Positions 4,919-64,000 of a stretch of 64,000 nt of DNA are shown here, piece after piece (positions within the stretch are counted from its first letter, which is position 1; every line of letters starts with the position of its first letter). Under the pieces are notes generated by a model that ran no database searches, was not told the origin of the DNA, and worked only from the letters and a program-made list of their open reading frames with translations. The stretch comes from Isoetes taiwanensis (lineage: Eukaryota > Streptophyta > Lycopodiopsida > Isoetales > Isoetaceae), in the NCBI GenBank assembly GCA_021234155.1, contig JAJEKV010000050.1, forward strand, positions 2,365,842-2,429,841, given 5' to 3'. The position numbers were made by a program, and so were the translations under genes.

Positions 4919-4962
4919 CGATCCTCTTTCTTGACACTGAGATCCTCTTTCTTGACACTGAG
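4919..4962 (+). repeat. Tandem duplication of a 22-bp unit
   Basis: The unit 'gatcctctttcttgacactga' occurs twice head to tail. No gene is seen in the surrounding 4691-5185. Confidence 0.9.
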
Positions 4963-18756: not shown

Positions 18757-18939
18757 CATTTACAGCAGCAAGTTGCAGATAAGTATATCCAAAGACTTGA
18801 AAGTATTGGTGAAGGTGAGTTACAAGACACTCTTGTAAACATGCAGGCGGAGTCCATTCAAAGACTCATTGGTGAGACTTTATTTCAGCAAGGTATTGAT
18901 CAAGATCAAGTAGAGATGTTGATTTTGACATCAAGCATG

Positions 18940-19345: not shown

Positions 19346-19404
19346 GCAATGGTGCAAGCAGCTTGGTGGCATGCGCAAATTCAGGAGGACGAGGTAAATC
19401 ACAT

Positions 19405-19635
19405 CAGTCCATGTTCATTACAGTCACCACAGTCACCACATTCACCACATTCATCACCTGCGCCATATTCATTACAGTCACCACATTCACCACAGTCATC
19501 ACCTGCACCACATTCATTACAGTCGCCACATTTACCACAGTCACCACATTCATCACTGTCACCACATTCACCACGGTCACTACATTCACCACATTCATCA
19601 CCACACTCACCACATTCATTACAGTCACCACATTC
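19405..19635 (+). repeat. CACCA-rich minisatellite encoding a Ser-Pro-His/Gln linker
   Basis: Imperfect 9- and 12-bp units based on CAGTCACCA / CATTCACCA / TCATCACCT fill about 230 bp. In the pol frame they encode repeats such as [17 protein letters not shown]. The linker joins the extra RNase H domain to RT. The same CACCA-based units occur in the LTRs. Confidence 0.9.
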
Positions 19636-19639
19636 AGTC

Positions 19640-21100: not shown

Positions 21101-21154
21101 GTAGTGGTGCTGAAGTAGAAGCGAAAACAGACCAGCAAGTAGCAGTTCAAGATA

Positions 21155-36200: not shown

Positions 36201-39191
36201 AGAACAGCGGGCAAAAGTTGGGTCTATGCCTCAAAATGGCTGGTATGACCAGGATTGTAAAACATTGCACAGGAAGTTGAAACGTGCTTTGAACTTCAGC
36301 CCTGATATAGTACCAGAAATTAAAGCTGAGTATAAAAGATTGACACGGGGCAAAAAGAGGGCACATGCTAAATCTTCTTTATAGTAATGCTTCTGGGCAG
36401 TTTTGGAGGAAATTGTCAGCTAGAAAATCAGATTGTCCTTGAAAAGATCTAGTGGTATGGTCAGCCAACAGTCCTCTCAGGATGAGCTAGATCCGAGGCC
36501 TCAAGCTCTTTTTTATGGTCTCTCTCATTGAAAGGGCCATACAAAAGTTAAACACAGGGAAAGCAAAAGATTGTGAAGAATTACAAGCTGAAATGATTAT
36601 ACATGGGGCTAAGACATTGGCACCAGTGGTTGCAGATTTGTTTAATGAAGCTATTTGCATTGGTTTCCCGCTGGTTTGGTCAAATAATGTTATAAAGCCT
36701 ATCCATAAGGCGGGCGATTCTACGAATCCTATTAATTATCGCCTAATTATGATTAGGCATGTGATGGCAAAACTGTATGAATCCACCTTGGAAATGGTCC
36801 TTAGTGATTTTGCAGAAAATCACAGCCTTAGCGCCAAGGAACAAGCTAGTTTCAGGAAAACCTTTTCCACAATTGATCATATTTTTCCTTTGAGGGCAAT
36901 CATTGAGGAAGCAAAGGCAAGAAAAAGTAAAGTTTATTGCTGTTTTGTTGATTTCCATAAAGCCTTTGATACTGTTCCTCGGAACAGGTTGTTTCAGAGG
37001 CTCAAAATGTTGGGGCTTTCTCATGAGCTGATCTGGGCAGTGTTGACATTATATGAGAATGTAATAGGTAGAGTGAAAATAGATGGGATGGGCAGTTTTC
37101 AGAGGAGATTTTCAGTACAATTGGGGTTAAACAAGGGTGTCCCCTCTCTCCTACTCTATTTGGCCTTTACATTGACGAGCTTGAAAACTTTGTTCATTCC
37201 TTAGGCGGAGAAGGCTCCATGCTTGCTCAGGAATGCATTCCAATTTTGCTTTATGCAGATGATGTGGTTCTAATCTCACCATCTCCTCAAGGGCTCCAAA
37301 AACATTTGGCTGCCCTAGAAGCCTTTTACAAAGATAGAGAGCTGCAAGTAAATCTCTACAAGGCCAAAGTGATGGTACTTAATGCCTCTTGGAAAAATTG
37401 GAAAAATAACTCTTTTACTTTCCAAGGACAGCTGTAGAAATTGTTTCTACATACACCTACTTGGTTGTGGAGTTTGCGGGCCCTCTTTTCAGATTGAGGG
37501 AGGCTGGTCAGGCAAGGATTGCAAAAGGATATGCTTCTCTTGTACAGCTAGAAAAACAGTGCTACCAACTCAATTTCCAAGATGTTCATACAAAGCTCTA
37601 CCTGTTCGACAGTTGGTGAAGCCGGCAGCTTTATATGGTGCACAAATATGGAGAGTTGACCTACGAGCCGATGACTGGGGTCAACTAGAGAGGCTCCAAA
37701 TTTCTCTTCTTTCTAGAATGATTAGAAGCAAACATTCTGTACCCCATGATATAATGCTTGCTGAATTTAATGCGAAACCTCTGAAGGTTGAAATTGCCTT
37801 TTAAACAGTGACTTATTTACATAAGTTACACCGTTTTGGACAGTCACAAGAAGGTCAAAAAAGACTTCCCTGGTTGGCATATGTGTCGTCTAAAACATTG
37901 GCAGACCATGGTAAGCGCTGTTCTCAAGTAAACAGTAAAGGAAAAACATAAGCAGTCCTTCAAAAGAGAAAACAAGTCTGGCATCACTTTATACTTTGGG
38001 CCCGTGGCCAAGAAGACAAATGTCTCTTAACTTCATTTGTTTTAGTTTTCTTTTTCCTTTTTTAAACAATATTTCCAGGTGGCTGCAAATGCGCCCCTAG
38101 CTGGACATGATTGATGTATATATGGCTTCATAGACCCAAGCGGTCTTTCGTAGATGTTAATATAATCTTTCTTTCAAGGACGTTTAAATTGTTTGAAGAG
38201 ATGGGTTTCTCTATGGGAAATATCCGACCTTTTCAATACAGTATAGTGGATAATAGTCTGAATTTTACTCAACAAGAAGTTAATCAGCTTATACAACATG
38301 ACTTGGAGTGTCTTTATGTTTCAAATACATGGGTAAATCCCATCAAAGATCTGCCTGCTAAAAAGAAATTCTATAAGGATAACTTCCTAAATATATCAGC
38401 AGATGGTTTCATCGTAAGGCCTGGATATTTGGATATTGATCTGCCGAATAAAGTGAGATACTCTATGGGGCAGTTTAGAGTGTCATCTCACCAGTTGGAG
38501 ATTGAGGTTGGTAGGGCGAAAAATATTATCCATGAAGATCGGAAATGCCCAATGTGCGATCTAAATATGGTTGAGTCAGAAGAACATTTTATTTTTGCCT
38601 GCCCAACCTACTACATTATTAGAGGCAGATATCATTGTCTTTTTAGAGACCCCACATCTCTACAACAGCTGGTAGAATATTACGATCAGAAATGTGTATC
38701 TCATTTTGCATATGAACTATCTCTAGAAAGGAGAAATATTCTCAAGCAAAAGAATCCAATGGGCCTGAAGCAAACAGAAATAACTGATTTCTTTTCATCC
38801 GAGTCAAACAATGATAAGATGGTAATGGAGTCATCACAGAAGAGAAAGTATCCTGAACCCTAAAGGGGTGACTTTGGCACTGTCTAAGAAGATAAAATGA
38901 TCAGCAGCCATGATACATAAAAGGTCTTTCCAGAAGAGACCAAGCATCAAGCATCACAGCAGATCAAGAAGGGGTATTATGAATTACTTTACAGCATTCA
39001 CAGGAACGAATGGGCTATCTCCATCAAACCCTATCTAAGCAGATTCTTAGATTTTCACTATAAGTTTTTGTTTAACTTAATATTTTTGTTTGCATACTTT
39101 AGATAACAGGAGGGTTTTCCTCTTGGAGGTCTTGAATTCTGTATGTATTATGGTCTCATAGACCCTTCGGGTCTTACGTAGACGTTAATAA

Positions 39192-46353: not shown

Positions 46354-46429
46354 CGTAGCTCCAAACCTTGGTTGTAAGAATGAATCTTGACTTTCAAGTA
46401 TAGAGAAGAATATGCTTAAATTCCGCGAA

Positions 46430-46825
46430 TAAAAATTTGGAAATAATTCCAAATATACCCCTCAATTTCGTAAATATTTCAAAAATACCCCAAAAAACAG
46501 TGTATTTGGCTGAAATGGCATTAACATTTTTGTGTTCGATCAAATAAAAACCTGCCTGCGTGAAACTTATACATACCCTAAAGCACTAGAATCATCTAAA
46601 GTGGAGTTGGAATCTTCAAGTCAAATGAGCATAACTTATGAATTTCAACGTAGATGAATTTGATCTTGTTCGAAAGGTTTTATTAAAATCTACAATGTCG
46701 TATAGACAAACTTTTAATTTGAGGAGTCACAAAAACTATATTACCATATTTACAAAAATGCTCTTTATTTGGAGGGTATTTTTAAAATATTTGCAAGATT
46801 GAGGGGTATATTTGAAATTTTCCCT
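46430..46825. mobile_element. MITE-like element in the 5' flank of the ELKS-like gene
   Basis: The left end (GGAAATAATTCC...ATATACCCCTCAATTTCG) and the inverse of the right end (AGGGAAAATTTC...ATATACCCCTCAATCTTG) match over about 50 bp. The inside contains 'gatgaatttgatcttgtt' and 'cacaaaaactatattaccat', shared with the copies at 24130 and 43330. The element ends about 80 bp upstream of the ATG at 46353, so it probably contributes 5' UTR or promoter sequence. Confidence 0.75.
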
Positions 46826-47159
46826 AAAACTTTTGAATTCGATGAGTTCACCGGGAACTTTTTGTAATTTTATTTATTTATTAGCAGGTTTGCCTTTTCT
46901 GGGGTACAAACTTTTCTTAATCCTCAGCATATCCACGTGGATAGCCACCTCAGCTTAATTATCCCATGTCGTCAGATGTCAAAACTTCGTAATCAATGGT
47001 GATGAAATTATAAAAAATGAAGAAATTTTTTTCCTTCTTCATATTGACTTTTATGGCAAGAAAAAATGGGTTGTGTCGTGTCCTCGTCGGATCTTCAAGT
47101 TTGTCCTTTTTTGCCAAAAGTAATTGGACGAAGGGGGTGAAAGCCATACAAATCTCTTG
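46826..47159. other. Spacer between MITE and LTR retrotransposon E1
   Basis: No feature recognised. If the MITE is recent, this is the displaced promoter region of the minus-strand gene. Confidence 0.4.
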
Positions 47160-48080
47160 TGTGACGTTCCAGTACGATATACGGTCTCAACTCATTGTAT
47201 TGGGGAGGGGGATAGAGACCTACAGCTTAGTAGTTGATGCTCCTAGCTAGCCTCCTTAGCACACTGTAATTTCGGCCTGTGTACAAGAACCACGCCTGGT
47301 TGTGGGTGAAGGGGCCAGACTGGCTCAGAAGGAGGTTCGTGTTCTGACTCTTGACCAATCCCTCTAGTGTGTAAAGTCTACCGGGGATCATAGTGGACTA
47401 GGTCTAATGGCTTGCCACTGAGTGTGGGCAAGGCATGGGCTCGACACCCGTGGGGTGATGCGTCACTCTCCAGTGGGTTCAAGTCGAATAAGGGTAGTGG
47501 CCCTCTAGTCACCTTGAGTCAGCGCAGGGATCTCTGGAGGGAGTGATCCCTACCTGCCCCATCGGAACTGGGGAGATGCAACCCAGGAATAGCCCCTTTG
47601 GCTATGCATCCGGCGGGCTACAGTCAGGTCCCAACACTCTTCAACCTACTCTGCAAAGTGTGCACAGGAGGGGCGGATGGAGTGGATAACCCTATGCCAT
47701 GTTCTCATGCCAGCCAAATCCATTGTTATGAATTCTGTCTGCAATGAACTCTGGAGACCCAAGCCGTCAGTCACCCCCTGAAGTCTGAGCCTTGGGTAGG
47801 AACCCATATGTATTGTGCTGATCTTTGTCTATGCAGATGTTGATGTACCACCCTTCGAGGTGGATATGTGATGATGTTGTATACTGACATGTATGTTTAC
47901 GCTTCCGCAGCTAGGTAGGCCCTGAGGGAGACGGGGTAAAATGACCGCTTCATTCTTCCCACTGGAACTCATTACGGTTGCAGTGATATGTGGAGGGCCC
48001 TGTATCAGCATGGAGCTGGTATGGGGGATGAGCTCTTGTTTGTATACGGTGAGTGCACCGTATACGAGTAGGGGACGTCA
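47160..48080 (+). repeat. 5' LTR of E1
   Basis: 921 bp, beginning TGTGACGT and ending GACGTCA, so the ends are inverted over TGACGT/ACGTCA. It shares long stretches with the E2 LTR, for example 'tgtgcacaggaggggcggat' at 47658 (E2: 56483). The primer site starts three bases after its end. Confidence 0.85.
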
Positions 48081-48083
48081 TAG

Positions 48084-48095
48084 TGGTATCAGAGC
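48084..48095 (+). promoter_or_regulatory. Primer-binding site, initiator tRNA-Met type
   Basis: TGGTATCAGAGC is the common plant retrotransposon primer site, complementary to the 3' end of initiator tRNA-Met. It marks the LTR boundary. Confidence 0.95.
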
Positions 48096-48287: not shown

Positions 48288-48354
48288 GTCTCACACGTCG
48301 CGCCAGGAGCAAAAATGAAACTCCCATTTTTGAGCTGGGCACAACGTGTGAGAC
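48288..48354 (+). repeat. Hairpin copy 1 upstream of the H3-like ORF
   Basis: Outer arms GTCTCACACGTCGCGCC and GGGCACAACGTGTGAGAC pair over about 16 bases. An inner stem AAAAATG/CATTTTT encloses AAACTCC. It is one of four copies in E1. Confidence 0.85.
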
Positions 48355-48502: not shown

Positions 48503-48569
48503 GTCTCACACGTCGCGCCATGAGCAAAACTGGAACTCCAGATATTGATCTGGGCGCAACGTGTGAGAC
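48503..48569 (+). repeat. Hairpin copy 2 upstream of the H3-like ORF
   Basis: Same outer arms (GTCTCACACGTCGCGCC / GGGCGCAACGTGTGAGAC). The inner stem is a different sequence, CTGG/CCAG around AACT, so the inner stem is kept by compensating changes. Confidence 0.85.
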
Positions 48570-48669: not shown

Positions 48670-48677
48670 TATAAATA
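48670..48677 (+). promoter_or_regulatory. TATA-box-like element before the H3-like ORF
   Basis: TATAAATA lies about 110 bases upstream of the ATG at 48781, inside CTATAAATAGACC. The same string precedes ORF2 at a similar distance. Confidence 0.55.
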
Positions 48678-48780: not shown

Positions 48781-50031
48781 ATGGCCAGGACGAAACAGAC
48801 TGCCAGAGTTCCTCCTAGAGATGCAACCCCCAGCGCCCTACTCCATGAAATGCTTCGGGAGCGCCCCTTTCACCAAGGAGGCCATCCTTCATCGAGTGAA
48901 GGGACATTGTCCGAGGAGCGTCCCGATAACCCCACCAACCAAGGAGGGGATGAGACGGAGGTCGAGGAGGACACACACTCCGATGCGGGAACAGAAGTCC
49001 TCGACAACGAGGAAGGAGACGTAATGCAGAAGGTCTTCGAAGAGATGGAGGAGGAAAGGAGACAGAAGGAGGAGCAAGATCGGGTGGTCGAGCAAAATGA
49101 AGAACAGAGGGAGCCGACGCTCGAGCCAGCCGAAGAAGAAGAACTAGCGGCGTGGATCAAGAGGCACGAAGCAAAAGAACGCCGCAGGGAGAGGAAGAGG
49201 GAAGAGAAGAAAAGGAAGAGGGAGGAGCAGGAGGCCAAGGACGCCGAGTTAAAGAAAAAGCTCAAGGGCAAAGGCGTGGCGCAGCCCAAGAGGAAGCTGA
49301 AGGAAACTCCCCGCACCAAGGTCGTCATCCAAGAACGACCCGCAGACCAGCCCCCATCCTCCTCGGGTGACTCGGAGGATGATGATTTTAACCCCCATGA
49401 TAAAGAGGCGGGTTCTTCAAAGGATCCCGTCAATGAGCAGGCAGTACCGGACCCGGAGCGGCCCGAGCAGGCGCAGAAGCCCCCACCATACCCGACGTGG
49501 GATAGAAACAAAGCACCGCGGCCAGCCCGAGAGGCGTATGTGATAGACCCCATCAAAGTCTATCAGAGGAAACTAAGGGAGTACAACGCCTTCATGGCGA
49601 AGTGGGAGGCATATAACTCCTACTATCAGGAGAACAAAGTAACGTTCGTTGAAGGTGGAGTGCCCTCTAAGAAGAAGACGCTCAGGCCACCACCCGAGAA
49701 GCTCAAGCCTCCTAGGCGACCAGCAAAAAGAAGAGCCAGCAAAAAGGAGAGCGAGAGGAAAGCGCTGCGGGAAATCAGGCATTTTCAACGTAGCTTCGGT
49801 TTCTTAATCCCCCGTGCACCGTTCGCCCGACTGGTCCGAGAAGTTATTCAAGAATACAACACGGAAATAAGGGTGACGGACGAGATGTTGCTGGCCCTGC
49901 AAGAGGCAACAGAGCAAAAACTAGTGCAGCATTTTGAAGATTCGATAGCCTGCACAGTTCATGCGAAGAGGGTGACACTCATGAAGAAGGACATGCAGCT
50001 TGCCAGCTACATCAAGGGAGATCCACAGTAA
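48781..50031 (+). CDS. E1 ORF1: histone H3-like protein with long internal insertion
   Basis: An intact 416-residue ORF. Residues 2-9 are ARTKQTAR, identical to residues 1-8 of mature histone H3; the next residue is Val where H3 has Lys9. Residues about 30-320 are an insertion: acidic stretches (EEDTHSD, DSEDDD), Glu/Lys/Arg-rich coiled coil, and basic candidate nuclear signals (KRRASKK, PKRKLK). From about residue 326 the H3 alpha-N helix and histone fold run to the end: ALREIRHFQ, then RLVREV, LALQEATE, FEDSIAC and HAKRVTLM. By hand, 37 of the last 71 residues match canonical H3. It could enter nucleosomes or bind H4 (inference). It lies between the 5' LTR and ORF2, after two hairpins and a TATA-like box. 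The ATG is fixed by the H3-like N-terminus. Confidence 0.92.
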   Translation: MARTKQTARVPPRDATPSALLHEMLRERPFHQGGHPSSSEGTLSEERPDNPTNQGGDETEVEEDTHSDAGTEVLDNEEGDVMQKVFEEMEEERRQKEEQDRVVEQNEEQREPTLEPAEEEELAAWIKRHEAKERRRERKREEKKRKREEQEAKDAELKKKLKGKGVAQPKRKLKETPRTKVVIQERPADQPPSSSGDSEDDDFNPHDKEAGSSKDPVNEQAVPDPERPEQAQKPPPYPTWDRNKAPRPAREAYVIDPIKVYQRKLREYNAFMAKWEAYNSYYQENKVTFVEGGVPSKKKTLRPPPEKLKPPRRPAKRRASKKESERKALREIRHFQRSFGFLIPRAPFARLVREVIQEYNTEIRVTDEMLLALQEATEQKLVQHFEDSIACTVHAKRVTLMKKDMQLASYIKGDPQ

Positions 50032-50175: not shown

Positions 50176-50244
50176 GTCTCACACGTCGCGCCAGGAGCGA
50201 AAATGAAACTCTCATTTTTTTTATCTGGGCGCAACGTGTGAGAC
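50176..50244 (+). repeat. Hairpin copy 3 upstream of ORF2
   Basis: Outer arms GTCTCACACGTCGCGCC / GGGCGCAACGTGTGAGAC; inner AAAATG...CATTTT. It lies 145 bases after the ORF1 stop. Confidence 0.85.
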
Positions 50245-50376: not shown

Positions 50377-50443
50377 GTCTCACACGTTGCGCCAGGAGCA
50401 AAAATGAAACTCCCATTTTTTATCTGGGCGCAACATGTGAGAC
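50377..50443 (+). repeat. Hairpin copy 4 upstream of ORF2
   Basis: Outer arms GTCTCACACGTTGCGCC / GGGCGCAACATGTGAGAC, with AAAAATG/CATTTTT inside. In this copy the C-A mismatch of other copies is repaired to T-A, and another mismatch appears. Confidence 0.85.
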
Positions 50444-50635: not shown

Positions 50636-50643
50636 TATAAATA
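50636..50643 (+). promoter_or_regulatory. TATA-box-like element before ORF2
   Basis: TATAAATA within CTATAAATAGACC, about 120 bases upstream of the ATG at 50757. It mirrors the element before ORF1. Confidence 0.55.
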
Positions 50644-50756: not shown

Positions 50757-52287
50757 ATGGCAACTGCTGACTTCAGGCGATGGTACAGCGCCAGTGCACA
50801 TGCAGCTGAGACCAATGTCAACACCATCTTCCAACTTTTCCAGAAAGAGATAGAGGTCCAAGCAACTCTGCATGCAACGCCGGCATATAGGCGAGTTTTA
50901 ACTGAGTTCCAAGCTAGGGTAGGTCAGTCCCTAGTGCAGCTTCTCCCTTGTATAGGCTATTTTGTTCCCCGCCCATCCCTTCAATCAGCCTTGGGTGATG
51001 TCCCGAACATTGCCAAGTACTTGACCAACAAGGCACAGAGCTAGGTTGTCAGATTACATGGTCCTGACAGTTGACAGGACCAAGTATTTTTCCTACACCG
51101 CCGCCTTGGCCATATTCCTTTCCCATCGTGCTGAAAACCCAATGGGAGAAACCTCTATTCCTCCCATGGAGGTGGACCCCATAGCGTCCTCAGCAGCAGA
51201 CCAGCTGCTTTTGCAGTACCAGTGAGAGCAAGAAGGAAGAACAGAAGAAGAAGAATCGGAAGATGAGGAATACGTGGAGCTCGACCCAGCAGAAGAACAA
51301 CGGCTAGCAGAAGAGGAGTTACCCAACTTCGAGCGAAGCCGGCAGACCCTCAGAGTCGCTCCCCCACTTGGGCTAGGCATCACAAGCCTAGCCCCCATCA
51401 TCATTGACGGTGAGGAATACCTGCTCCTCAGCGATATCCGGAATCTCCCTGAATGCAGGGAGAGAGAACTCCGACTCGATGAGTTGCTGCACCAACTACG
51501 GCAGCAATCAGACCTAGATGATTTCATCGTCCGGGGAGTCTCAGACTTCTCGCTTCAAGTGAGAGAAGCCGACACCTATACAGGGGAGTCGACTTCGGAC
51601 ATCCAAGCCTACAGCAACATAAGGCAAATAATGGAAGCTCGAGAACTGCCATCTAAGGAGGAGTTCTATGCCATCCAGGAACGGATGAGGATCCGTGGCA
51701 AGACCACAAGCATTTTGATGCCGAGCTCTTCGACACCAGCTCGCACAAGAGGAGCAGGAATCGACATCAGGCGAGTTTCATTGACAATCAGAGATTACAG
51801 AGAAATCACTGAGGTAGAGGTCGATGAATACGCCGGAAGACATAGAGCTGGAGGCCAAGCGGGTGACGAGTCATCAACGACACACAATGACAGGTCGTTG
51901 AGGTACTACCTTCCCCTGCTACTGGATGGGAGAATAGCGGTAATACACCGCAAATTCAGTCTCCGGGACGAAGAAGGAGTGTTTATGCTCATTGCACTCT
52001 CTGGCTTTGGCATGCATGCTTGGATGGCTGCAAACATCGACTATGCTGTCTTAGTCAAGAGAGCGATAGCACTTGACATCTTCGACTTCGCTGTGCCCTA
52101 CCGACGGCAGGGAAGATTAGCAGTAACCGCGGCCTACACCTCCGACCGCAGAGTAGAGGAATTGGTGATAGCCTTGCAGGGCGGGACGTCAACCGATATC
52201 CTCAGGAACTTGGGACGCTCGGTAGGAACGGCCCAAGTTAAGAAATTTCTTGAGGATAACCCATCCTACCGGCGATTTCAAGAATAG
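50757..52287 (+). CDS. E1 ORF2: protein of unknown function shared with E2
   Basis: It begins MATADFRRWYSASAHAAE at ATG 50757. The first frame stops at 51044. The adjoining frame continues (KYFSYTAALAIFLSHRAE), meets a stop near 51225, and then runs open from about 51227 to 52287 (LAEEELPNFERSRQTLR..., DGEEYLLLSDI..., LLLDGRIAVIHRKFSLRD..., ending SYRRFQE). E2 has the counterparts QYLEATFALAIL, LAEELPHRREQA, GQEYLLLDDI and YGQVLFIARDLG in the same order, so this is one conserved protein of about 500 residues. Here it is broken by one frameshift and one stop. I recognise no domain. It lies between the H3-like ORF and gag. An AATAAAA follows at 52332. Confidence 0.7.
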
Positions 52288-52425: not shown

Positions 52426-53700
52426 ATGAATCTAATCGTAAGGCCATGGTCAACTGTGTATGCAGATAGAGAACAAAGAATAGTCGAACAAAAAAGGAGG
52501 CACAACAGAGATGAAGAGACCCCTGACAGGCAACCCATCCCAAGGAACCTATTCGAGGCATTTGGTCCCATGACCCCAGAAGAGGAGACGTCGCAAATGA
52601 GAACCGAACTCGACCAGATAAAGGCTCTACTAGCGGCACAAGCATCAGCCGGGCCACAAACAACACCTCGAAAGTCGGGGAAGGATAAGAAGAGGAGTAA
52701 GAGAAGGAGGTCTCCTAGTACAGAAACCTCCGACTCAAGCTCGATCTCGGACTCTGAGTCCGAGAAAGAAGCTGAACAAGTGCAGGACCGTAGGGACGGC
52801 AGGCAGAAGGACGTTAAGGTCTTAGACTACCAAGAGCATTGGGCAACATATGGAAGGCCAGGAAGCTTGAACAATTCTCAGGCGAGAACAGGTCAGGCTT
52901 GGAAGCAGAGGCGTGGCTCGATGAGATGAGCGAGTATGGTAACGCCTATGGGATGAAAGACAAGGACAACGGCAGGGTGGCAACAACCAACCTGAAGGGA
53001 GCAGCACGAATCTGGTGGAAGGGTTATGCCAAGGCCCATGGCTTAAGCAGAGATAGGTGCAGATTCAAGAAGTTTGCTAAAGCCTATAAGCGCCATTACG
53101 TCCCACGGGAACACAAGTCCAACATGATGCAGCAGTTTCACAGGTTGCAACAAGGGTACAAAACAGTCCAGAAGTACACCGAGGAGTTCATGAGACTAAG
53201 GTTCTATGTGCCGAAGTTGAGTAAAAAGCACGCAGTGGAGAGCTACATTGAAGAACTGAATGAAGAGATCCGTAAGCTTGTAAGGGCAATAGACCCCAAG
53301 ACGGTATCAGAAGCAGAATCCAAAGCAATCAGCTTGCAAGGAACGGGGCCTCAAAACAGCGGGCAGAAGCAGCCACACTACCAGGATAGAGGCAAGGCAA
53401 TAGGGAGTTATAGCCCTAGAGCATCCAACCCAAGTCCAGCTAAATCCCCATATAGTAGCAACCAGGGGAGACAGCAGGAGAGGAAGCAGGTGTCCTTCAA
53501 GGACAAGCAGGAAGGGTCGAACTACTCAAAAGCAGTGCGATCTTTCTTACAAGCAATGCCCAAAGAGAAGAGACAGGAGTGTATAGAGAAGCAGCTTTGC
53601 TTCAGATGCTTCCAGCCAGGGCACAGAACGGCGAACTGCCCCTTCGTCATGAGTGCAGCGCTAGCGGAGTTGGGTGGATGGGACACTACGTCTGACGATG
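52426..53700 (+). CDS. E1 Gag
   Basis: It starts at ATG 52426. The N-terminal part has a coiled stretch ([20 protein letters not shown]) and a Ser/Arg-rich basic segment. A frame change is needed near 52838. The capsid domain then reads [41 protein letters not shown] and [13 protein letters not shown]. The CCHC knuckle [14 protein letters not shown] is at about 53600-53640. It corresponds segment by segment to E2 Gag. It should assemble particles and bind RNA. The frame after 52839 is open into pol, so Gag and Pol are one fused polyprotein, as in several plant Ty3/gypsy lineages. Confidence 0.85.
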
Positions 53701-55317
53701 ACGGCGAGGCAGCACGCGATTATATTGAGGGTGAGTGCCACATTTTTGCTGCTATAGATATAGAACAAGCAGATAATCAATATAGAGTAATTTCCACAAT
53801 AGGGAAGGCCAAAACCAAGTCTTTCATAGTTTTAATAGACTCGGGAAGTAGCCACAACTTCGCCTCCCCAAGGATGGTCGACATGTTGAAGTTGAAACCC
53901 TTAAAATCCAAACCAAGGCCCGTAATCTTGGCAAGCAGAGCAGTAAGACAAATGGCAGGGAAGAGGATCAATTTCGACATTGACTTGCCGGGTATTAATA
54001 TCCTGATGGGAGCAAAAGTAATGGGCATCGGCAAGTACGACTTGATAATAGGAATGGAGTACCTTGGACCAGCAGGGGCCATCATTGATTGTGGAAAGCG
54101 GAAGGTGACCCTCACAACGCCCGACGGCAAAGTTATTGAGATCACAGGTAAAGAAGTTGCTCCCATCATGCAGTGTATGTCTATTAAGAAGCTGCTCAAA
54201 TCTATCAAGAGCGAGCAAGTAGCATATATCTTCAAACTTGAGATTGAAGAACCCGAGTCGGAGGAAAGCAAGGAAGACAAAGTGCTCAGCAAGTTGCCCA
54301 ATCAAATAGCCAACTTGATCACGGAGTTCCACGATCTCTTCCCAGATGAGATCGAGCAGCTTCCTCCTTACAGGGGAGTCGAGTGTGAGATAGCATTCGA
54401 ACCAGGAACCAAGCCGACGAGCAAGGCTCCGTATAGAATGATGATGCAGGAACTGACGGAGCTAAAGAAACAATTGCAGGAATTGCTCGACCTAGGCTTC
54501 ATTAGACCTAGCGTCTCACCATTTGGGGCACCCATTCTCTTTGTCAAGAAGAAGGATGGCAGCTTGAGGATGTGCATAGATTACAGACAGCTGAATAAGC
54601 ACACCATCAAGAACAAGTACGCGCTCCCCAGATCGGACGACTTGATGGATCAGCTCCAAGGGGCAAAAGTCTTCTCCAAGATCGACCTAAGGTCAGGTTA
54701 TCACCAGATCAGCATAAAGGAAGAAGACGTCCACAAAACGGCCTTCAAGACCAGGTATGGGCATTACGAGTTCACAGTAATGTCATTTGGGCTATCAAAT
54801 GCCCCAGCAACATTCATGAGACTCATGAACGACATCTTCAGGGAGTTCTTGGACACCTTCGTGATAGTGTTCTTTGATGACATTCTGGTGTATAGCAGAT
54901 CCATTGAAGAACATGCACAACACGTAAGAAGGGTGCTCGAGAAGTTGAGAAGGCACCAGAGTTGTCGAAGTGCCACTTCGCAACAGAGAAGGTGGAATAC
55001 CTAGGTCATGCGATTTCAGCAGAAGGAATCTCGACGGATCATGCCAAGATTGAAGCAGTGATTCAATGGCCGGCGCCAAAGAACGTCCACGAGGTCAGAA
55101 GTTTCCTTGGCCTAGCAGGGTACTACAAGAAGTTCGTGAAGAACTTCGCAAAGATAGCAGCCCCACTAACAGACTTGACAAAGGCGGAAAAGGTGAAGAA
55201 TTGGGCAGATCATTGGCTCAAGAAAGCCCAAGCAAGCTTTGAATTGTTGAAGGAAGCTTTAACAACCGCCCCCGTCTTGACCCTGCCAGACCCAGAGAAG
55301 GACAAGTTAGTGGCGAC
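53701..55317 (+). CDS. E1 Pol: protease and reverse transcriptase, interrupted by E2
   Basis: The protease has [14 protein letters not shown] near 53825 (DSG catalytic) and IIGMEYLGP near 54045. RT motifs follow: [17 protein letters not shown] near 54565, [12 protein letters not shown] near 54675, [15 protein letters not shown] near 54780 and [10 protein letters not shown] near 54870, the catalytic YxDD box (FFDD here). A frameshift near 54950 separates LRRHQ from [15 protein letters not shown]. The connection domain continues until LVAT, where E2 is inserted, just before the first RNase H Asp. Residues are well conserved, so apart from the frameshift and the insertion this pol looks fairly young. 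Confidence 0.9.
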
Positions 55318-56931
55318 TGTGACGTTCCACGTATTTATACGGTCTACCTCACGTATTTATACAGGACATGTACAAATACAAGCACGTCACCCCCTAAAGG
55401 TACGCCACTATGGCGGGTATGGGAACTTAATGGTAACCTAGGGGGTTACTCTTAAGTGGATTAAATTAGCTATGCTAATTTAATACATTAAAGTTAATAA
55501 CCTAATTAGGCTAGTTGCTGTTTGGGGAAGGCGCCACCTGCCCCAATCAATTGGGCAGCATGGGGGTTGCCAAGTTTGGATGCCAACTTGACCCCTATCC
55601 CTGGGATTGACTCCTGAAGTTCGACCAAGGAAGGCCAGGAGCTGAGCGCCATCATACACCTGCAGAGAACCACCATACCAGTCGCCCCTGTGAAGCAACA
55701 GCTGAATTCTCAACTCCCCGGAGATGGAGGCGCCCCATGGAAACGAGTCCAGCCAGAATTCAGGTAGGTGACTATGTGAATTCTGGATAACACTTGGTTG
55801 TGTTCATCTCTCTGTTCTCTTTGTGATTCAATCATAGAAACTAACCCTTGATTGTACAAGCAAGTTTTCTTTATATTCAATTCTGGTTCTTACTCTGAAA
55901 GGATGGATTGTTAGTTCTTTGTTTAATCTGACTCTGAAACGAGGGGATTACGGGGGGTAGAGACCTCTGAACCGTGTATGGTAGCATGTTCCTAGACAGC
56001 GCCATGTAGAGTCCCATTAAATGCGGCCTGTGCACAAGAGCCCACCGGGTCCTAGATGCTATGGTCTGGCTTAGCACCAGACAAGGAACACAGTGGTGAC
56101 ATGAGGGGTGGGGTCTTGCATGAGCATACAAGGCTCCCCGAGACTCCTACAAAGGGCTAGGGCCCGATAGCCTGGCCACGGAGAGGGCCGGGTATGGGTC
56201 CGACACTCCCTCGGGTGTAGAGGTGTGATCCGTATGGAGCACCTTTGCACTTTGAGTAGATTTAGGGTGAGTAAGCTCTGCACGGATGCGGGGTCGCTGA
56301 TGCGCACGTATTCTCTAGCTCACCCATGGAACCACCGTGATTCGGAAGGGGCGCTTCCCCCCACCTGCCTCATCGGACCAAAGCGCCATGAACCCGAGTA
56401 GGCTCGGCGGGTGATCCCTTGAACCTCGCTCTCCCTAAGGCTATAGCAAAGCCATAGCATGAATTGACCCATCCGCAAAGTGTGCACAGGAGGGGCGGAT
56501 GGAGTGGACAACCCTAGCCGATGTTCTATGCCAGCCAACGCCATGCCAAGACTCTACTGGCTGATCTCTTGAGGCCCAAATTCCGGTCGATCCTCACCGA
56601 GTCCGAGCCGGGTAGAACCCGGTTTTGGGTGTTTTCTTAGGATTAGATGCATATTCTATGCCGCTGGTATTTTGAGGGACGCCCACCCTTTCGTGGTGGT
56701 TATTTATGTATATTCATGCTGTGTGCTAACCCTTGTATTCATGCTTCCGCGACGTAGGAGTCCCATTGAAGGCGTGGGCCGAATGACCCCTTCGTGTCCT
56801 TCTTTCGGGCCTCATTTTATAGATGGCCTGAAATAGACGGAGGGCCCTGCTCATGGTGAGATGATTGCCATGGGAGGGGAAAGTCCCCGTATGTATACGT
56901 CCGAGGGTCGTTATATATTCCTGGATCGCCA
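55318..56931 (+). repeat. 5' LTR of E2
   Basis: About 1.6 kb, with the right end uncertain. It is longer than the E1 LTR because of about 600 extra bases near its start (55330-55940). Shared stretches include 'tgtgcacaggaggggcggat' (56483) and 'ggtagagacctct' versus 'gatagagacctac'. The primer site is poorly preserved ('gcaggtagagcc' at about 56934). Confidence 0.7.
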
Positions 56932-57681: not shown

Positions 57682-58896
57682 ATGGCCATCACCAAGAGCG
57701 CTCCAGATCCAACCACCTTGAGCATCGTGGAGATCTATGCCATGATTGCTAAGCACATGGCTACTGACCCAGCCCTCATTGACATCTTGTTGGATGAGCT
57801 GGTCAACAGGTTTGAGAACAACGATAGGATTCCATATCCTATCTATCACTTCTCAGAGCCATTCCTCATCCGGCTGAACCTACGCCACCCCATATACCAT
57901 TGTTGAGCAACTGATATGGTGATGATGCTCATCAAATTTTATCCGCCGGAAAGGGGAAGGCCATACGGAGGGAGGAAGATGTCGCAGGCAGGGCCGTCAT
58001 CGGGGTTTGGCCAGAGAGGATGACCACAGGGAGATTGAGCGGGCCGACACGGCAGCCCGGGGAAAGGAGTAGTGTATTACCTCGGGGGCGGCTTTGTTGG
58101 CCATTGATGGTCGCACCATCGAGGTTCCCCATACCATTGGCATGAGGGTTCCAATAGTTTTGAATGGGGAGAAATCCCCGACATCAGCTTAGAGTATCCG
58201 ATAACTATTCGTGATAGATATGGGTCTCATGCTGCCAAACCGCACTCCACGCGAACTTAACCGACGCGGTCGAGCCCAAATTTTGCTCAGTTCAGAAGAT
58301 CCGAGGAGAGCCCGAAGAATCCGAGAAACTTGAGCAGGAGGAGCGGACCGGCAAAGAAGAGGCAGGTGCATTCGGGAGTGGGCCGGGCCCACCCCAACGC
58401 ATCGACTATCAAGCACCGGGCGAAGGCCATCGCCCATAAGGCCTAGGCAATACAAGGAGAAATTAAGGACCGCCGGGGCTTTTGGCAAGAAGACGAGTGC
58501 CGCCGAGGAGGCAGGGCTGGTGGACAACTCCCCACCGGTTGCCGGAGCTAAGACGGTGCCGGGCAGACCGACGGGCCACCAGAAAGCCCAGCGCAGACAA
58601 ATGGAAGCCTCACCGTACCGACCCTGACCGTAGCATTGCGGAAATCCGCAAATTTCGAAGTCTACCACCTTCCGAGGAAGCTACCTTTTCACAGGGCGGT
58701 ACGTGAGATCGCACAGCAGTTCAAGACCGATCTCCGTTTCCAGACCTTTGCCATTTTGGCGCTCCAAGAGGCTGCTGAAGCCTACTTGGTGGCACTTTTT
58801 GGTGACGCCAATCTTTGCGCTATCCACGCAAAGAGGGTCACTATAATGCCTAAGGATCTAGCCCTCGCCCGTAGGATACGGGGGGAGCAACCTTAG
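57682..58896 (+). pseudogene. E2 ORF1: histone H3-like protein, frameshifted
   Basis: The ORF begins MAITKSAPDPTTLS at ATG 57682, which weakly resembles the E1 start (MARTKQTAR...) and closes at 57906. A GC-rich degenerate insert region follows. The H3 part starts with [19 protein letters not shown] at 58605, clearly the H3 segment before and through the alpha-N helix. A frameshift near 58665 follows, then [37 protein letters not shown] and [16 protein letters not shown] to the stop at 58896. By hand alignment 58 of 71 core residues equal canonical plant H3, more than in E1. The product cannot be made from this copy without correction. Followed by AATAAA at 58942. Confidence 0.85.
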
Positions 58897-59096: not shown

Positions 59097-60499
59097 ATGG
59101 CTGCCGCCGCCGACCTTGCCGCCTGGTACCATGATGGAGAGAAATGGGATCCACAAGTTCCCTTTGATCTGCTGCAACCTTTGCTATGCCAACGCATAGA
59201 TCTCCTTACCAATATGCAGCGGCATCCGGACTACGCCGGATTCCTTGATTTCTACATGGAGGAAATCCTTCCTCTGTGTATTCCTCTTGGGGATCCTCCC
59301 CAGCTGTACTTGGAGCGGGAGATAGTCCGGCAGATGTTAGGTGGGGACACACATGCTTATGACGTCTTGAAGGGGAAACTCCGATGGGGTAAACATCCAC
59401 CCGCTGGTCCAAAGATCGTGGGGCAGCAATATCTGGAAGCTACTTTTGCCCTAGCCATCCTCATGGACCAATACGTTGAGGATGAGACCTTGCCTCTAGA
59501 GAAGGGCAACCGCCGTAATCCTCCGGTGAGGGGGGATGAGCATATAGGAATGGGCGACTTTGGCGTTGGAAAGAGCTAGCGGAGGAGTTACCACATCGCC
59601 GTGAGCAAGCTATAGGCTTTGTCGGGGTTAGACGGCCTTCCGGCATATATCACCAAGGGCAAGAGTACCTTCTCTTGGATGATATTATCCGACTTATCAC
59701 ATGGTGGTTTGGATTCGAATGCAAGCGCAAGGACCATGTACTTTTACGAGCTTATGGAGTATTGCATGGATGATTTTATCGACTTCACTTCCACCGAAGC
59801 TTCCTTCGGAGGTGCACCACCGCTCAGGTTCCTCGGGGAGACCATAGAGCCGGCGGAGACTCTATTACGCCTTCGAGACTTAAGTGATGCGTGAACCAAA
59901 CGCAACTTTGCACTGTGATGCCTTCCGGCTATGGGACCTCACGCCCCAAACATTAATATGGTTGAGGTTCCCTCCGACTCGGATGATGAGGGTGAAGATT
60001 TATATCATAACCCTAAGACAAGAAGGAGGAGCAGCAGGAGCTCAAGGAGGAAGAAGTCCCCATGGACTTGGATAAGGAAGTGGCGAGATCTCGAGACTCA
60101 TAAGGGAAGGTCTTTGGGTAACCACCTTACCCGTTTCTTTTGTCGGCCTTCAAATACGGGCAAGTCCTCTTCATAGCCCGGGATCTAGGGCCAGAGGCTG
60201 AAGCTTCATGGTGGGCCCTCCGTGCACTCTCTACACTGGCCGGCCACAAGAAGCTTCCCTATCGTACGTTTACGTATGTACTCGTACGACGGGATCTCGC
60301 CCTGACGGCCTTGGGCCAGGATATTGCGCCTTGGATGGGCATGAAGCTCCTCACGGCAGCTCCATTGGTCGTTGCCTATCCACCGGAGGTTGCATCTGTT
60401 GCGGCTGCCACAGTAGACCCTGGGGTAACTCTGCTGAGACACCGACCGCCTCCACCACCTCCTAGGGCCAGGGATAAAGAGGCAGGGCCTAGTTCTTAG
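59097..60499 (+). pseudogene. E2 ORF2: counterpart of E1 ORF2, frameshifted
   Basis: It begins MAAAADLAAWYHDGEKW at ATG 59097 (E1: MATADFRRWY). The segment QQYLEATFALAILMDQYVED near 59430 matches E1 KYFSYTAALAIFLSHRAE. After a frame change near 59567, WKELAEELPHRREQAIGF and GQEYLLLDDI match E1 LAEEELPNFE and GEEYLLLSDI. The last part, in a further frame (60140-60499), reads YGQVLFIARDLGPEAE...LRALSTLAG and ends Pro-rich. No domain is recognised. At least two frameshifts are needed. The conservation between E1 and E2 shows that the ORF was under selection in an ancestor. Confidence 0.65.
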
Positions 60500-61429: not shown

Positions 61430-62690
61430 TGAATGCTCCTTATAGACGGTGTACGTAACGCCGCTTGGCAAACACCCTCCAATGCCAGTAGGCTCACCCC
61501 TGAACAAGAATTGATGTTAATGAAGAGGCAACTCGGCGAATTATAGGCCTATGTGTTGCATACCAATCCACTGCAACAAACTCAGGAGGACGGACCGGAA
61601 TTACCTCCGCGACCATTGAGTCCACCTGCACAACAGCCATCTTCTCCCAGAGCTAGCCCTGTACCTATACAAAGGAGGACTCATCCTAAGCGTCATCGAA
61701 GTTCCTCTAAGGATAGTGCCGCTTCCTCACATTCAACCACTTCGGTGTCTTCGGGGTCATCGCTATCAGACAGTGACCATTCGAGGCGTAAGGATAAGGA
61801 ATACCGGAAAACCGTTGACACAGCCATAACTAGTATATGGAAGAACCGGAAGCTGGCCCAGTTTGATGGGAAATCCAGAGGAGGCTTGAATGCAGAATCT
61901 TGGTTGGATGAGATGAAGGAATTTGGGAAATCCTATGGAATGACGGAGAAGGATACAGGGAAGGTCGCGACCACCAACCTTACCGGAGCTGCCCGTATTT
62001 GGTGGAAGGGTTATGCCAGAGCCAAGCACCTGGACAGGAGCAGATGCAAGTTCAAAAAGTTCGCTAAGGCTTTTAAATCGCATTATGTGCCTCGTGCGCA
62101 CAAATGCCAACAATTGATTCCTTCTACAGGTTGGAAAGGAAGGGCATGTCCGCTCGAGCCTACACGGATGAATTTATGCGCTTAAGGTTGTATGTACCGG
62201 GAATGAATGAAAAAAAAGGGCGTGAGGGCTACATTGAAGGGTTGGCCCCATCCATTAAACGCATGGTCAAGGCCATAGACCCAAAATCGAGCGCGCGAGG
62301 CGGGAAGCTAAGGCATTAAGCCTCGAGGAGGACACGCCAAGGAACCAAGATCCGCGACCGCCTCCTTACTGCAGCAGCCCACGCCTGCCCACGCCTTTAC
62401 AAACCCGTTCGCCAAGTCCGGGGCCCTCTCAAAGACAATTCTTCGGCCGCCAGGAGAAGAAAGTCGCCAAAGACGCCCGGATAAGCGTAACAATGCCGGC
62501 AAGGAAATTCGGGCCTCTTCACGGTCCCATTCCTAAAGAGGCCGTGAGAACAGCTCGGCCGGGATAAGGCATGCTACTGTGTGTATGAGGCACGGACACT
62601 TCATGCACTTGCCCGTACGCGTCGCAGACGCCTACCGGTGGCCATGGCCGACCTTGATTGGGAAGATCTGAGTCCAATCTCCTCACGGAG
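61430..62690 (+). pseudogene. E2 Gag, frameshifted
   Basis: The first part (LTPEQELMLMKRQLGEL, near 61490-61540) matches E1 [13 protein letters not shown] and ends at a TAG. A Ser/Arg/Lys-rich stretch follows. The capsid domain reads [42 protein letters not shown]; a frame change near 62105 leads to YTDEFMRLRLYVPGMNEKKG. The segment to 62690 is degenerate and the expected zinc knuckle near 62570-62610 is no longer readable. Compared with E1 it has the same domain order and length but is clearly more decayed. Confidence 0.8.
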
Positions 62691-64000
62691 GACGAGGCTC
62701 CCCGAGTACATTTCACCCGGTCGTCTCATATTCTTGCCGCTATAGAAACAGGCAACGCTGAAAGTCAGCCTTCTGTTATTTCTACAATAGGCCAAGTAGA
62801 CAGTAAGCCTTTTATAATTTTGATGGACACGGGTAGTACGCATAATTTTGCTTCTCCTAGAATGGCCCAGGTACTGCATCTGGAAACGTTGAGATCCCGA
62901 CCTAAGCCAGTCACATTAGCCAGTGGTAAGATCAGACACACTCATGGCCGCCGTATTAACCTTAAGATGCAGTTGCCAGGTGCACCAGTTGCCTTGGGTG
63001 CGGAGTTAATGGACATTGGCAAATATGATCTTATTGTTGGAATGGAGGGCATATGCATGCTACACCCTGCCATTTTTGGAACCTGCCAAAGTACCTGCAC
63101 TAGGTACTTTTGGAGTGGGTACTATTTTCTTGTTCTTTTGGTCAAAACTAATTCAAAAGTTCAATATAAAATGTCAAAAGCATATCAATATTCAAGGTTA
63201 AGATAGAGATAATACTATTGGAGGCCAAAATGAATGCATTCAATTTAACATTTGTAGTTATTGAGATATTATAAAAGTACCCAGTACCCAGTATTGGGTA
63301 CTTTTTTAGGTAGTTTTATGGTTCCTAAATGGTACTTTTTTTGATAGGGTGTAGCATGCTTATGCCCTGGAGTTTTTAACATCTGCCAAGGCCAACATAG
63401 ACTGTGAGAAACGGGAGGTCACCTTCAACGCCGCTAATGGAGCACGTGTGACTATAAAAGGTGATTCATTCCACTTCGCTATGCAGTCAATGTCAATAAA
63501 GAAGTTAGAAAAAGCTATACGCAGGAATGAACTCCTTTGCCTCATTACACTTGCCTCCATTGAGTCTGACTCCAAGCAGAAGCAAGTAATCGACGCCTTA
63601 CCACCAGACATTGCTATCCTTCTTCGAGAGTTTAGCGATCTTTTTCCAGATGAGATCCATAAGCTTCCTCCTTTCAGAGGGGTAGAATGTGAGATAACTC
63701 TTGAACCGGGTACTAAGCCTACCAGCAAGGCCCCGTACCGAATGAGCCCTCCAGAGTTAGCGGAGCTTAAGAAACAACTAGAAGAGTTACTGAACCTGGG
63801 GTTTATTCGGCCCAGTGTTTCACCATTTAACGCTCCTATTCTTTTTGTCAAGAAGAAAGATGGCTCCTTAAGGATGTGTATTGATTATAGGCAACTCAAT
63901 AAGCATACCATCAAGAATCGCTATGCTTTGCCTAGGGCAGATGATCTTATGGACCAGTTACAAGGGGCAAAATATTTCTCAAAGATTGATTTGCGCTCCG
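62691..64000 (+). CDS. E2 Pol: protease and RT N-terminus, interrupted by a MITE
   Basis: The protease has [14 protein letters not shown] near 62820 (DTG catalytic) and YDLIVGME near 63030. A 321-bp MITE then interrupts it. After the insertion the frame resumes [14 protein letters not shown] at 63372, and RT begins: [19 protein letters not shown] near 63640, [17 protein letters not shown] near 63870 and SKIDLRS at the window edge. If the MITE and one TSD copy are ignored, the frame is continuous. RT is close to E1 RT in every readable block, confirming the two elements as one family. The catalytic YxDD box lies beyond the window. Confidence 0.9.
63047..63367. mobile_element. MITE-like element, 321 bp, with 4-bp target duplication
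   Basis: Terminal inverted repeats GGGCATATGCATGCTACACC (left) and GGGCATAAGCATGCTACACC (inverse of right) match in 21 of 22 positions over their full length. They are flanked by TGGA on both sides (63043-63046 and 63368-63371). Inside are several GGTACT/AGTACC motifs. There is no coding capacity. Removing the element and one TGGA restores the pol frame, so the ends are exact. Confidence 0.9.

What the first reader, a model, noticed from the sequence alone, without database searches (positions are those of the whole stretch)
48781..50031. Intact retrotransposon ORF carrying a histone H3 fold
The last 91 residues align end to end with the H3 alpha-N helix and histone fold (ALREIR, RLVREV, LALQEA, HAKRVT), with 37 of 71 core residues identical by hand. 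The ORF is open for 416 codons, between the LTR and gag. Histones in mobile elements are very unusual, and I know of no LTR retrotransposon family with H3. It might form nucleosomes on element DNA, guide integration, or interfere with silencing.
Basis: partly seen in the sequence, partly recalled or inferred. Interest (0 to 1): 0.97.

Follow-up and report, generated by a model that had tools for sequence, protein, structure and literature searches.

The report
Plant retrotransposon carrying histone H3
A jumping gene in a plant genome (probably the quillwort Isoetes taiwanensis) carries its own, selectively maintained version of the DNA-packaging protein histone H3, keeping the first residues of the H3 tail and the H3 core but replacing what lies between, which suggests that it re-dresses chromatin for its own benefit.

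Summary
A charged linker of about 300 aa lies between. The element is a Ty3/gypsy chromovirus; other copies encode integrase with a chromodomain. A degenerate pattern for the tail tip (Ser also allowed at its two Arg) matches 1,888 genome sites, reversed control 0; only 15 of 150 scored matches look like canonical H3. Constraint sits on the two H3 parts: pN/pS tail 0.05, core 0.14, the rest 0.28-0.51 (16 open ORFs); reverse transcriptase 0.09. A second, related family has a near-canonical core (73-74 of 84 residues in two copies; pN/pS 0.036) behind a different N-terminus. Best reading: an element-encoded H3 variant with a swapped tail that enters chromatin and resists silencing. Identity and selection are shown; mechanism is inferred. 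Nearest precedent found: an H3-like gene on a fungal hAT DNA transposon (PMC3538342, passages).

The parts
47189..48083 (+). partial 5' LTR (about the last 0.9 kb of a ~1.5 kb LTR)
   Evidence: 91.7-92.3% identity to LTRs of two other copies
48084..48095 (+). primer binding site TGGTATCAGAGC (initiator tRNA-Met type, recalled)
48288..48354 (+). hairpin element 1 upstream of ORF1
   Evidence: repeat; RNA fold z -7.4
48503..48569 (+). hairpin element 2 upstream of ORF1
   Evidence: z -7.6
48670..48677 (+). TATA-box-like TATAAATA, 111 nt before the ORF1 ATG
   Evidence: present at about -100 to -123 in 12 of 12 distinct family-1 copies examined, this one included
48781..50031 (+). ORF1, 416 aa: H3 tail residues 1-8 + charged linker + H3 fold
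48781..48807 (+). MARTKQTAR (initiator Met + H3 residues 1-8)
   Evidence: 30 of 44 family-1 copies exact, 21 DNA spellings; degenerate pattern 1,888 places, reversed control 0
48808..49758 (+). charged linker with two predicted long helical stretches (residues 77-163 and 257-285)
   Evidence: pN/pS 0.28-0.51 by part
49759..50028 (+). H3 histone fold (residues 327-416)
50176..50243 (+). hairpin element 3 upstream of ORF2
   Evidence: z -8.3
50377..50443 (+). hairpin element 4 upstream of ORF2
   Evidence: z -7.9
50636..50643 (+). TATA-box-like TATAAATA, 121 nt before the ORF2 ATG
   Evidence: a second such box 1.76-1.87 kb after the ORF1 ATG in 7 of 8 copies examined, this one included
50757..52287 (+). 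ORF2, no known domain; broken here into 50757-51044 and 51274-52287
   Evidence: one homologue found, P0049, 501 aa, 51% identity; 86 scored places in the genome
52426..52929 (+). ORF overlapping the gag start, no confident domain
52839..55004 (+). gag (PF03732), weak zinc knuckle, protease (PF08284), reverse transcriptase (PF00078)
54962..55441 (+). probable remnant of the end of RT and start of RNase H in another frame (by eye); integrase not found after it
   Evidence: no match of integrase-region DNA of other copies
56472..56793 (+). distantly related LTR piece (about 69-70% identity), probably of the second element
57682..58896 (+). second element (family 2), ORF1, frame-broken here; H3 fold at 58552-58896
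   Evidence: PF00125 7.6e-29 on 58636-58893; start; open 413-aa copy elsewhere
59097..60499 (+). second element, pieces of ORF2
61547..62185 (+). second element, gag piece
   Evidence: 69% DNA identity to element 1 gag
63355..64000 (+). second element, protease/RT piece running off the window
   Evidence: 66% amino-acid identity to element 1 over 215 aa

Best explanation
ORF1 is an element-encoded histone H3 variant of a Ty3/gypsy chromovirus lineage. SHOWN: the H3 fold; exact H3 residues 1-8 at the N-terminus; a replaced tail between them; many diverged copies; purifying selection concentrated on the tail tip and the core, the core about as constrained as the element's reverse transcriptase; an upstream hairpin + TATA-like module. 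INFERRED: the protein is made from its own transcript, pairs with host H4 through the retained interface, and is built into chromatin (on newly made element cDNA, on integrated copies, or host-wide). It offers the K4 end of H3, which active-chromatin enzymes and readers use, but mostly no K9 and no recognisable K27 region, so nucleosomes that hold it could not be marked for heterochromatic silencing. The element would thereby keep its chromatin open, or poison the silencing of its family. In family 2 the core is almost canonical while the tail is a different region of some 300 aa, so what both families share is an H3 core carrying a foreign tail.
For: H3 fold by profile, sequence, model and fold search. 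Residues recalled as H3-H3', DNA or loop contacts are retained in 34 family-1 cores: C110 34, H113 32, K115 34, R116 34, T118 32, D123 34, L126 34, R83 33, R69 32, R72 32 of 34. Tail: 30 of 44 exact MARTKQTAR; next residue V 30, K 10, L/I/R/P 1 each; degenerate pattern 1,888 sites against 0 reversed. pN/pS by part in 16 open ORFs: tail 0.046, residues 10-76 0.51, coil 0.28, linker 0.40, second helix 0.29, basic 0.45, core 0.14; in 9 close pairs tail (0.07) and core (0.12) are again the lowest. Core in 34 copies 0.10; family-2 core 0.036 in 10 copies; RT yardstick 0.087. Two LTR-flanked copies hold ORF1 and pol between LTRs 96.5% (1,532 columns) and 98.3% (1,552 columns) identical. Upstream hairpin + TATA-like modules before ORF1 and ORF2.
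Against: No expression, H4-binding or chromatin data. R63 is P in 34 of 34; R129 is replaced in at least 33 of 34; K122 is Q in 17 and K in 16; K56 is R in 32, so a family-1 nucleosome may be unstable or not form. 10 of 44 copies keep K9. Three of 10 family-2 copies have an internal ARKS motif, which could be K9/K27-like. In the closest pairs (synonymous divergence 0.1 or less) the ratios are higher: core 0.24 (4 pairs), tail 2.2 (3 pairs), and 0.27 for the tail in the next bin (36 pairs), as expected of dead copies that decay. Copies were chosen by protein similarity and often for open frames, and the 16 ORFs by a tail motif, which lowers pN/pS, most of all for the tail there; the 44 tails (0.065) were not chosen by that motif but needed at least 5 of 9 matches. 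No H3 with a comparable insertion between tail tip and core is known to me (recalled).
Confidence: 0.45

Rival explanations
1. Packaging and targeting: ORF1 coats element cDNA or enters the particle or pre-integration complex, and the H3 tail tip or core, together with the chromodomain of the integrase, steers integration. It need not enter host nucleosomes.
For: The ORF lies upstream of gag in the same element; the integrase of 2 of 2 copies scanned ends in a chromodomain (PF00385 at 1.4e-9 and 1.6e-10); DNA-contact residues are kept; long predicted helices could join it to Gag.
Against: ORF1 is not fused to gag and has its own TATA-like module. A DNA-binding or particle role does not by itself explain retention of both the exact tail tip and the H3-H3' contact residues.
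Confidence: 0.25
2. Soluble decoy: ORF1 uses the tail tip to occupy readers or enzymes of H3K4 (PHD-finger, WDR5- or LSD1-type proteins, recalled) or uses the core to occupy histone chaperones, without lasting incorporation.
For: The strongest constraint is on residues 1-8 (pN/pS about 0.05-0.07), the part bound by such proteins (recalled); changes at R63, K56 and K122 could disfavour stable nucleosomes.
Against: In family 2 none of the 9 of 10 copies whose start could be read begins ARTKQTAR, yet the core is almost canonical and under stronger constraint, so tail mimicry is unlikely to be the common function.
Confidence: 0.2
3. Passenger capture: a host H3 gene fragment was transduced and is carried without function.
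For: Transduction of host gene pieces by plant LTR elements is known (PMC7264820, passages); the youngest pairs show little constraint on the tail.
Against: Synonymous sites strongly diverged with pN/pS 0.04-0.14 in tail and core; 21 DNA spellings for the same tail in 30 copies; two diverged families.
Confidence: 0.03
4. The H3 is a centromeric variant (CENH3) captured to target centromeres.
For: Chromoviruses of the CRM clade colonise centromeres (PMC3059260, search listing only).
Against: Cores align to canonical H3 without a loop-1 insertion; two grass CENH3-like rows form a separate supported group in the tree.
Confidence: 0.05

Closest known systems
Histone H3-like H3L gene on a hAT DNA transposon of Pyrenophora tritici-repentis (PMC3538342; passages read)
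   Same: An H3-like protein carried and multiplied by a mobile element, next to an ORF of unknown function.
   Different: DNA transposon, fungus, 10 long and 16 short highly similar copies in the reference genome. Here: LTR retrotransposon, many diverged copies, separated tail and core, measured selection.
AlkB-type RNA demethylase ORF of orchid Ty3/gypsy elements (PMC9289625; passages read)
   Same: A plant Ty3/gypsy family that acquired and kept an extra ORF with a host-like regulatory domain.
   Different: RNA demethylase, element with Tat-like dual RNase H; not a histone.
Plant chromoviruses of the REXdb survey (PMC6317226; passages read)
   Same: Pol with C-terminal chromodomain; [quoted passage not shown]
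   Different: 'Histone' occurs once in its main text, for H3K9; no histone ORF in the passages seen. The clade of the present element (Galadriel, Tcn1, Tekay, Reina, CRM) was not assigned.
Canonical plant histone H3 (host loci L095-L097)
   Same: Residues 1-8 of the tail; fold; 44-47 of 84 core residues in the three family-1-type ORFs compared, 73-74 of 84 in the two family-2 copies compared.
   Different: Residues 9-46 replaced by about 300 aa in family 1; tail replaced in family 2 up to about KPHRFRPG.
Virus-encoded histones (bracovirus H4, giant-virus histones; recalled, not searched)
   Same: A parasite-borne histone that could alter host chromatin.
   Different: Other histones, other genetic elements; recalled only.

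Membership tests
Histone H3 | H3-type histone fold with alphaN | tested here: met
   PF00125 5e-25, PDB H3 about 1e-23, model and Foldseek
Histone H3 | N-terminal ARTKQTAR | tested here: met
   window copy exact; 30 of 44 family-1 copies exact; not met in family 2
Histone H3 | rest of the tail (K9-S10, K14, K27-S28, K36) | tested here: not met
   residue 9 is V in 30 and K in 10 of 44; the residues after it do not resemble H3; family 2 keeps KPHRFRPGTV or similar before alphaN
Histone H3 | residues of the H3-H3' interface and main DNA contacts (positions recalled) | tested here: met
   C110, H113, R116, D123, L126, R83, R69, R72, K115, T118 kept in 32-34 of 34; R63, K56 and R129 are not kept
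Histone H3 | assembles with H4 into nucleosomes | not testable with these tools
   no complex prediction or assay available
Centromeric H3 (CENH3) | longer loop 1 and grouping with CENH3 | tested here: not met
   ungapped against canonical H3; tree with two grass CENH3-like rows
Ty3/gypsy chromovirus | LTRs, PBS, gag, PR, RT, RNase H, integrase in that order | tested here: met
   pieced together from the window and other copies; in the window copy RNase H is cut and integrase missing
Ty3/gypsy chromovirus | chromodomain at the C-terminus of integrase | tested here: met
   PF00385 in 2 of 2 copies scanned (L053, L066)
Ty3/gypsy chromovirus with H3K9me-binding (type I) chromodomain | three-residue aromatic cage | tested here: inconclusive
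   by eye, P0050 lacks aromatics at the first and last cage positions and keeps the W, the type II pattern described in PMC6317226; no alignment to HP1 was computed
hAT H3L transduplication | TIRs and hAT transposase | tested here: not met
   the element has LTRs and RT; no hAT family in the Pfam scans of its ORFs; TIRs were not searched for
Non-functional captured gene | no purifying selection within the element | tested here: not met
   pN/pS 0.04-0.14 in tail and core over all pairs; weaker in the few closest pairs

The most novel reading that the evidence does not exclude
A plant retrotransposon lineage builds its own chromatin: it supplies a replacement histone H3 that keeps only the activating end of the tail and the nucleosome-forming core, mostly lacks the K9/K27 silencing region, and is expressed from its own promoter, so that element DNA is wrapped in nucleosomes that the host cannot silence; the integrase chromodomain may even read the element's own H3.
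Probability: 0.3. Interest if true: 0.96.

Novelty: new variant of a known kind. Interest (0 to 1): 0.88.

Why it matters
If the protein enters chromatin, this is a histone variant that evolved in a parasite of the genome and not in the host. It would be a natural experiment in which parts of H3 a selfish element needs (residues 1-8 and the core) and which it discards (K9 to K36), and a natural counterpart of laboratory H3K9 mutants. It would also make testable two open points: what the cage-less type II chromodomains of plant chromoviruses bind (their partner is called unidentified in PMC6317226, passage), and how retrotransposons counter H3K9-based silencing in seed-free plants, if the host is indeed a quillwort. 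Even without the mechanism, a genome with 1,888 sites that match the H3 tail-tip pattern but only 15 canonical-looking H3 loci among 150 scored matches matters for histone annotation and for antibodies against the H3 N-terminus.

Tried and rejected
CENH3 origin: rejected. Passenger capture: rejected by selection. Chance match: rejected. A single capture of H3 versus two: not settled; family 1 and family 2 share related gag-pol and pieces of ORF2, yet family 1 sits on a long branch and family 2 near canonical H3, with weak support (84/0) for the fork that joins them (92 columns; six of 34 gathered rows dropped as chimeric, deleted or near-duplicate, and only 4 of 10 family-2 copies entered). 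ORF2: no Pfam domain; structure model poor, mean pLDDT 37, not interpreted, no fold search made. Dating of the window copy by LTRs: not possible, no matching 3' LTR. Target-site duplications of two LTR-flanked copies: looked at by eye, not established. Wider occurrence: the first protein search gave 48 hits, of which I read 15; two, P0001 and P0022, are long MARTKQTARK-starting H3 proteins from unnamed sources that may be relatives of ORF1; the other 13 looked like extended canonical H3, grass CENH3-like proteins or other H3-fold proteins. The search with a family-2 ORF1 was flooded by H3 proteins: 5,477 hits, 120 listed, none with a local alignment over more than 41% of the query; full-length relatives further down cannot be excluded. 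Host H3 genes: 3 of 15 strong matches read. Host name: inferred from assembly size (1,658,258,908 bases in 1,110 contigs, against 1658.30 Mb in 204 scaffolds + 909 contigs for Isoetes taiwanensis, PMC8566536, passages); no tool named it. Genome searches with P0001 and P0022 never got an answer.

Full report
WHAT WAS CHECKED. The ORF at 48781-50031 is open for 416 codons. Its C-terminal part matches the core-histone profile at 5e-25 and histone H3 chains of the PDB at about 1e-23. Without gaps, 46 of 84 residues equal a plant H3 (P0011) from A47 to I130 and 47 of 84 equal each of three H3 loci of the host genome. AlphaFold on an alignment of 36 rows, all H3-fold hits or the query, puts helices at 321-338, 345-358, 367-394 and 402-411, with pLDDT 90-94 over residues 341-410. 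Foldseek's 50 listed matches are histone or nucleosome entries.

The protein begins MARTKQTAR: after removal of the initiator Met these are H3 residues 1-8. In 44 family-1 copies (of 46 loci examined) the nonapeptide is exact in 30, with 21 different DNA spellings; the other 14 differ at one to three positions, one of them by a stop. The next residue, K9 in H3, is V in 30, K in 10, and L, I, R or P in one each. A degenerate DNA pattern for the nonapeptide occurs 904 + 984 = 1,888 times in the genome; the reversed control pattern occurs 0 times. The pattern also admits Ser at the two Arg positions, and the last base of the last codon is not read, so 1,888 is an upper count of exact tips; the first 50 of the 100 listed places read MARTKQTA in 50 of 50, in 32 spellings. 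I fetched 12 of the 100 listed places, chosen by eye for different spellings: 12 of 12 read MARTKQTAR, 0 of 12 were canonical host H3, and 8 of 12 have the HAKRVT core motif within about 1.45 kb; 4 of 12 do not and may be remnants. A search with a plant H3 found 15 strong matches (84-96% identity, 269.9 bits or more), then a gap to 189.5 bits; many of the places below it are also in the list of the family-2 search; 150 of 8,813 candidates were scored. Three of the 15 were read: each holds a canonical 136-aa H3.

THE ELEMENT. The window copy has a partial 5' LTR (47189-48083), a primer binding site (48084), ORF1, a broken ORF2, then gag, a weak zinc knuckle, protease and reverse transcriptase. 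The pol frame breaks at the end of RT, and integrase is missing in this copy. Other copies go on to RNase H, integrase and a chromodomain: PF00385 in 2 of 2 copies scanned (L053, L066). Two copies have paired LTRs of about 1.5 kb around ORF1 and pol, 96.5% and 98.3% identical (5 copies tried; of the other three, one gave no match, one a 42-base match only, one matches that do not form an LTR pair). One of the two has an open 451-aa ORF1, the other an ORF1 with a deletion inside the core. With 30 and 23 mismatches, and a rate of 1.3e-8 per site and year recalled from rice and perhaps wrong for this host, the LTRs are roughly 0.8 and 0.6 million years old.

PROMOTER-LIKE MODULES. Before ORF1 and again before ORF2 of the window copy stand two hairpin elements (GTCTCACACG...CGTGTGAGAC; folding z-scores -7.4 to -8.3), then TCTATAAATAGA. 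The TATA-like box lies about 100-123 nt before the ORF1 ATG in 12 of 12 distinct family-1 copies, and a second one 1.76-1.87 kb after it in 7 of 8. I infer separate transcription; no start site was measured.

SELECTION. In 16 open full-length ORFs (15 family-1 copies and one from the pattern sample, chosen by start motif, length and core motif) pooled pN/pS is 0.046 for residues 2-9, 0.51 for 10-76, 0.28 for 77-163, 0.40 for 164-256, 0.29 for 257-300, 0.45 for 301-326 and 0.14 for the core. In nine close pairs, six of them among four sequences, tail (0.07) and core (0.12) are again lowest, the rest 0.20-0.39. In 34 ungapped cores of 46 loci the ratio is 0.10, in 44 tails 0.065 (two cores hold a stop). 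Against this, the closest pairs of all (synonymous divergence 0.1 or less) give 0.24 for the core (4 pairs) and 2.2 for the tail (3 pairs), and the next bin gives 0.13 (31 pairs) and 0.27 (36 pairs): old differences are filtered, recent ones much less, as expected of dead copies. The element's reverse transcriptase gives 0.087 in 6 rows, of which two are the same copy; 4 of the 10 loci tried were left out, two with gaps and two without a match. Choosing copies by similarity and by open frames lowers all these numbers; the contrast between parts of one ORF is less affected, though the tail of the 16 ORFs was part of the choice. The core is thus kept about as strictly as the reverse transcriptase, and the linker less.

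SECOND FAMILY. From about 57.7 kb the window holds a related, decayed element with its own H3 fold (PF00125 7.6e-29). A genome search with it scored 150 of 7,852 candidates, many in frames of more than 400 codons. Ten copies were fetched: ORF1 is about 413 aa, starting MAITKS or similar in the 9 whose start could be read, with an N-terminal region without Pfam match and without visible similarity to family 1, and a core 73 and 74 of 84 identical to host H3 in the two copies compared; core pN/pS 0.036. Three of the ten have an internal ARKS motif. Gag-pol of the two families is related (66% amino-acid identity over 215 aa). In a 28-row tree family 1 and family 2 are each one supported group (100/99); family 2 lies near canonical H3, with weak support for the joining fork.

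DISTRIBUTION. A search with the larger part of ORF2 found one protein at E <= 0.001 among 4,311 candidates, P0049, 51% identical over 98% of the query. P0049 matches 86 scored places of this genome at 46-52%, so it does not come from the copies scored here, and related elements exist in some other, unnamed sample. P0001 and P0022 are long MARTKQTARK-starting H3 proteins from unnamed sources; their link to an element is not shown. The host is probably the quillwort Isoetes taiwanensis, by assembly size; the word 'histone' was not found in the main text of that genome paper.

MECHANISM. Shown: identity, architecture, selection. Inferred: that the protein acts as a histone. The retained H3-H3' and DNA-contact residues (C110, H113, R116, D123, L126, R83, R69, R72, K115, T118 in 32-34 of 34; roles recalled) and the near-canonical family-2 core favour pairing with H4. 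The loss of K9 in 34 of 44 copies and of a recognisable K27 region in family 1 favours nucleosomes that can carry K4 but not silencing marks. Against it: P at position 63, Q or K at 122, R at 56 and loss of R129, no expression data, and K9 kept in 10 of 44. Rivals: coating of cDNA and steering of integration with the chromodomain; a soluble decoy for H3K4 readers or chaperones. I give the incorporation reading 0.45.

COMPARISON WITH WHAT IS KNOWN. A fungal hAT DNA transposon carries an H3-like gene (PMC3538342, passages). Plant LTR elements often carry extra ORFs, mostly without known domains (PMC9289625, passages; PMC6317226, passages; PMC7264820, passages; PMC12786077, passages). Ten searches of the held library listed no LTR element with a histone ORF that I could see from titles, abstract starts and the passages named (one search was aimed at the host genome). 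The library lacks most subscription journals and all bioRxiv preprints, so absence there is weak evidence.

Noticed in passing
48288-48354, 48503-48569, 50176-50243, 50377-50443: Four strong hairpins in two pairs, each pair upstream of a TATA-like box and an ORF (ORF1, ORF2), with arms found at like places in the family-1 copies examined. None was found near ORF1 of the family-2 element of the window. They may be regulatory palindromes.
   Followed up: partly
L073-L082: Family-2 ORF1 has a conserved-looking N-terminal region with no Pfam match, ahead of an almost canonical H3 core.
   Followed up: partly
34 family-1 cores: The dyad residue K122 of H3 is Q in 17 and K in 16 of 34 copies, a two-state polymorphism at a site known for acetylation (recalled).
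   Followed up: no
L083 and equal spellings: One DNA spelling of MARTKQTAR recurs often in the list but in the one copy read is followed by a stop after 14 codons, with no HAKRVT motif in the 1.5 kb; perhaps a derivative that lost the core.
   Followed up: no
window 16287-22462: Another Ty3/gypsy-like element with gag-, RT- and integrase-like ORFs and a serine/proline/histidine-rich stretch (by eye).
   Followed up: no
window 35770-38863: Non-LTR retrotransposon-like ORFs with reverse-transcriptase motifs (by eye).
   Followed up: no
window 1-5000: Strong strand bias: AT skew -0.37 to -0.52 with negative GC skew, so the + strand is very pyrimidine-rich for 5 kb.
   Followed up: no
window 46426-46841: Inverted repeat, 60-nt arms 82% complementary in the ungapped search and longer in BLAST, MITE-like, just upstream of the element.
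   Followed up: no
P0031 (620 aa), P0025 (424 aa): Long H3-fold proteins from unnamed sources: P0031 has an H3 with MARTKQTAR start fused to a large C-terminal region; P0025 is a long H3-fold protein seen on 605 contigs.
   Followed up: no
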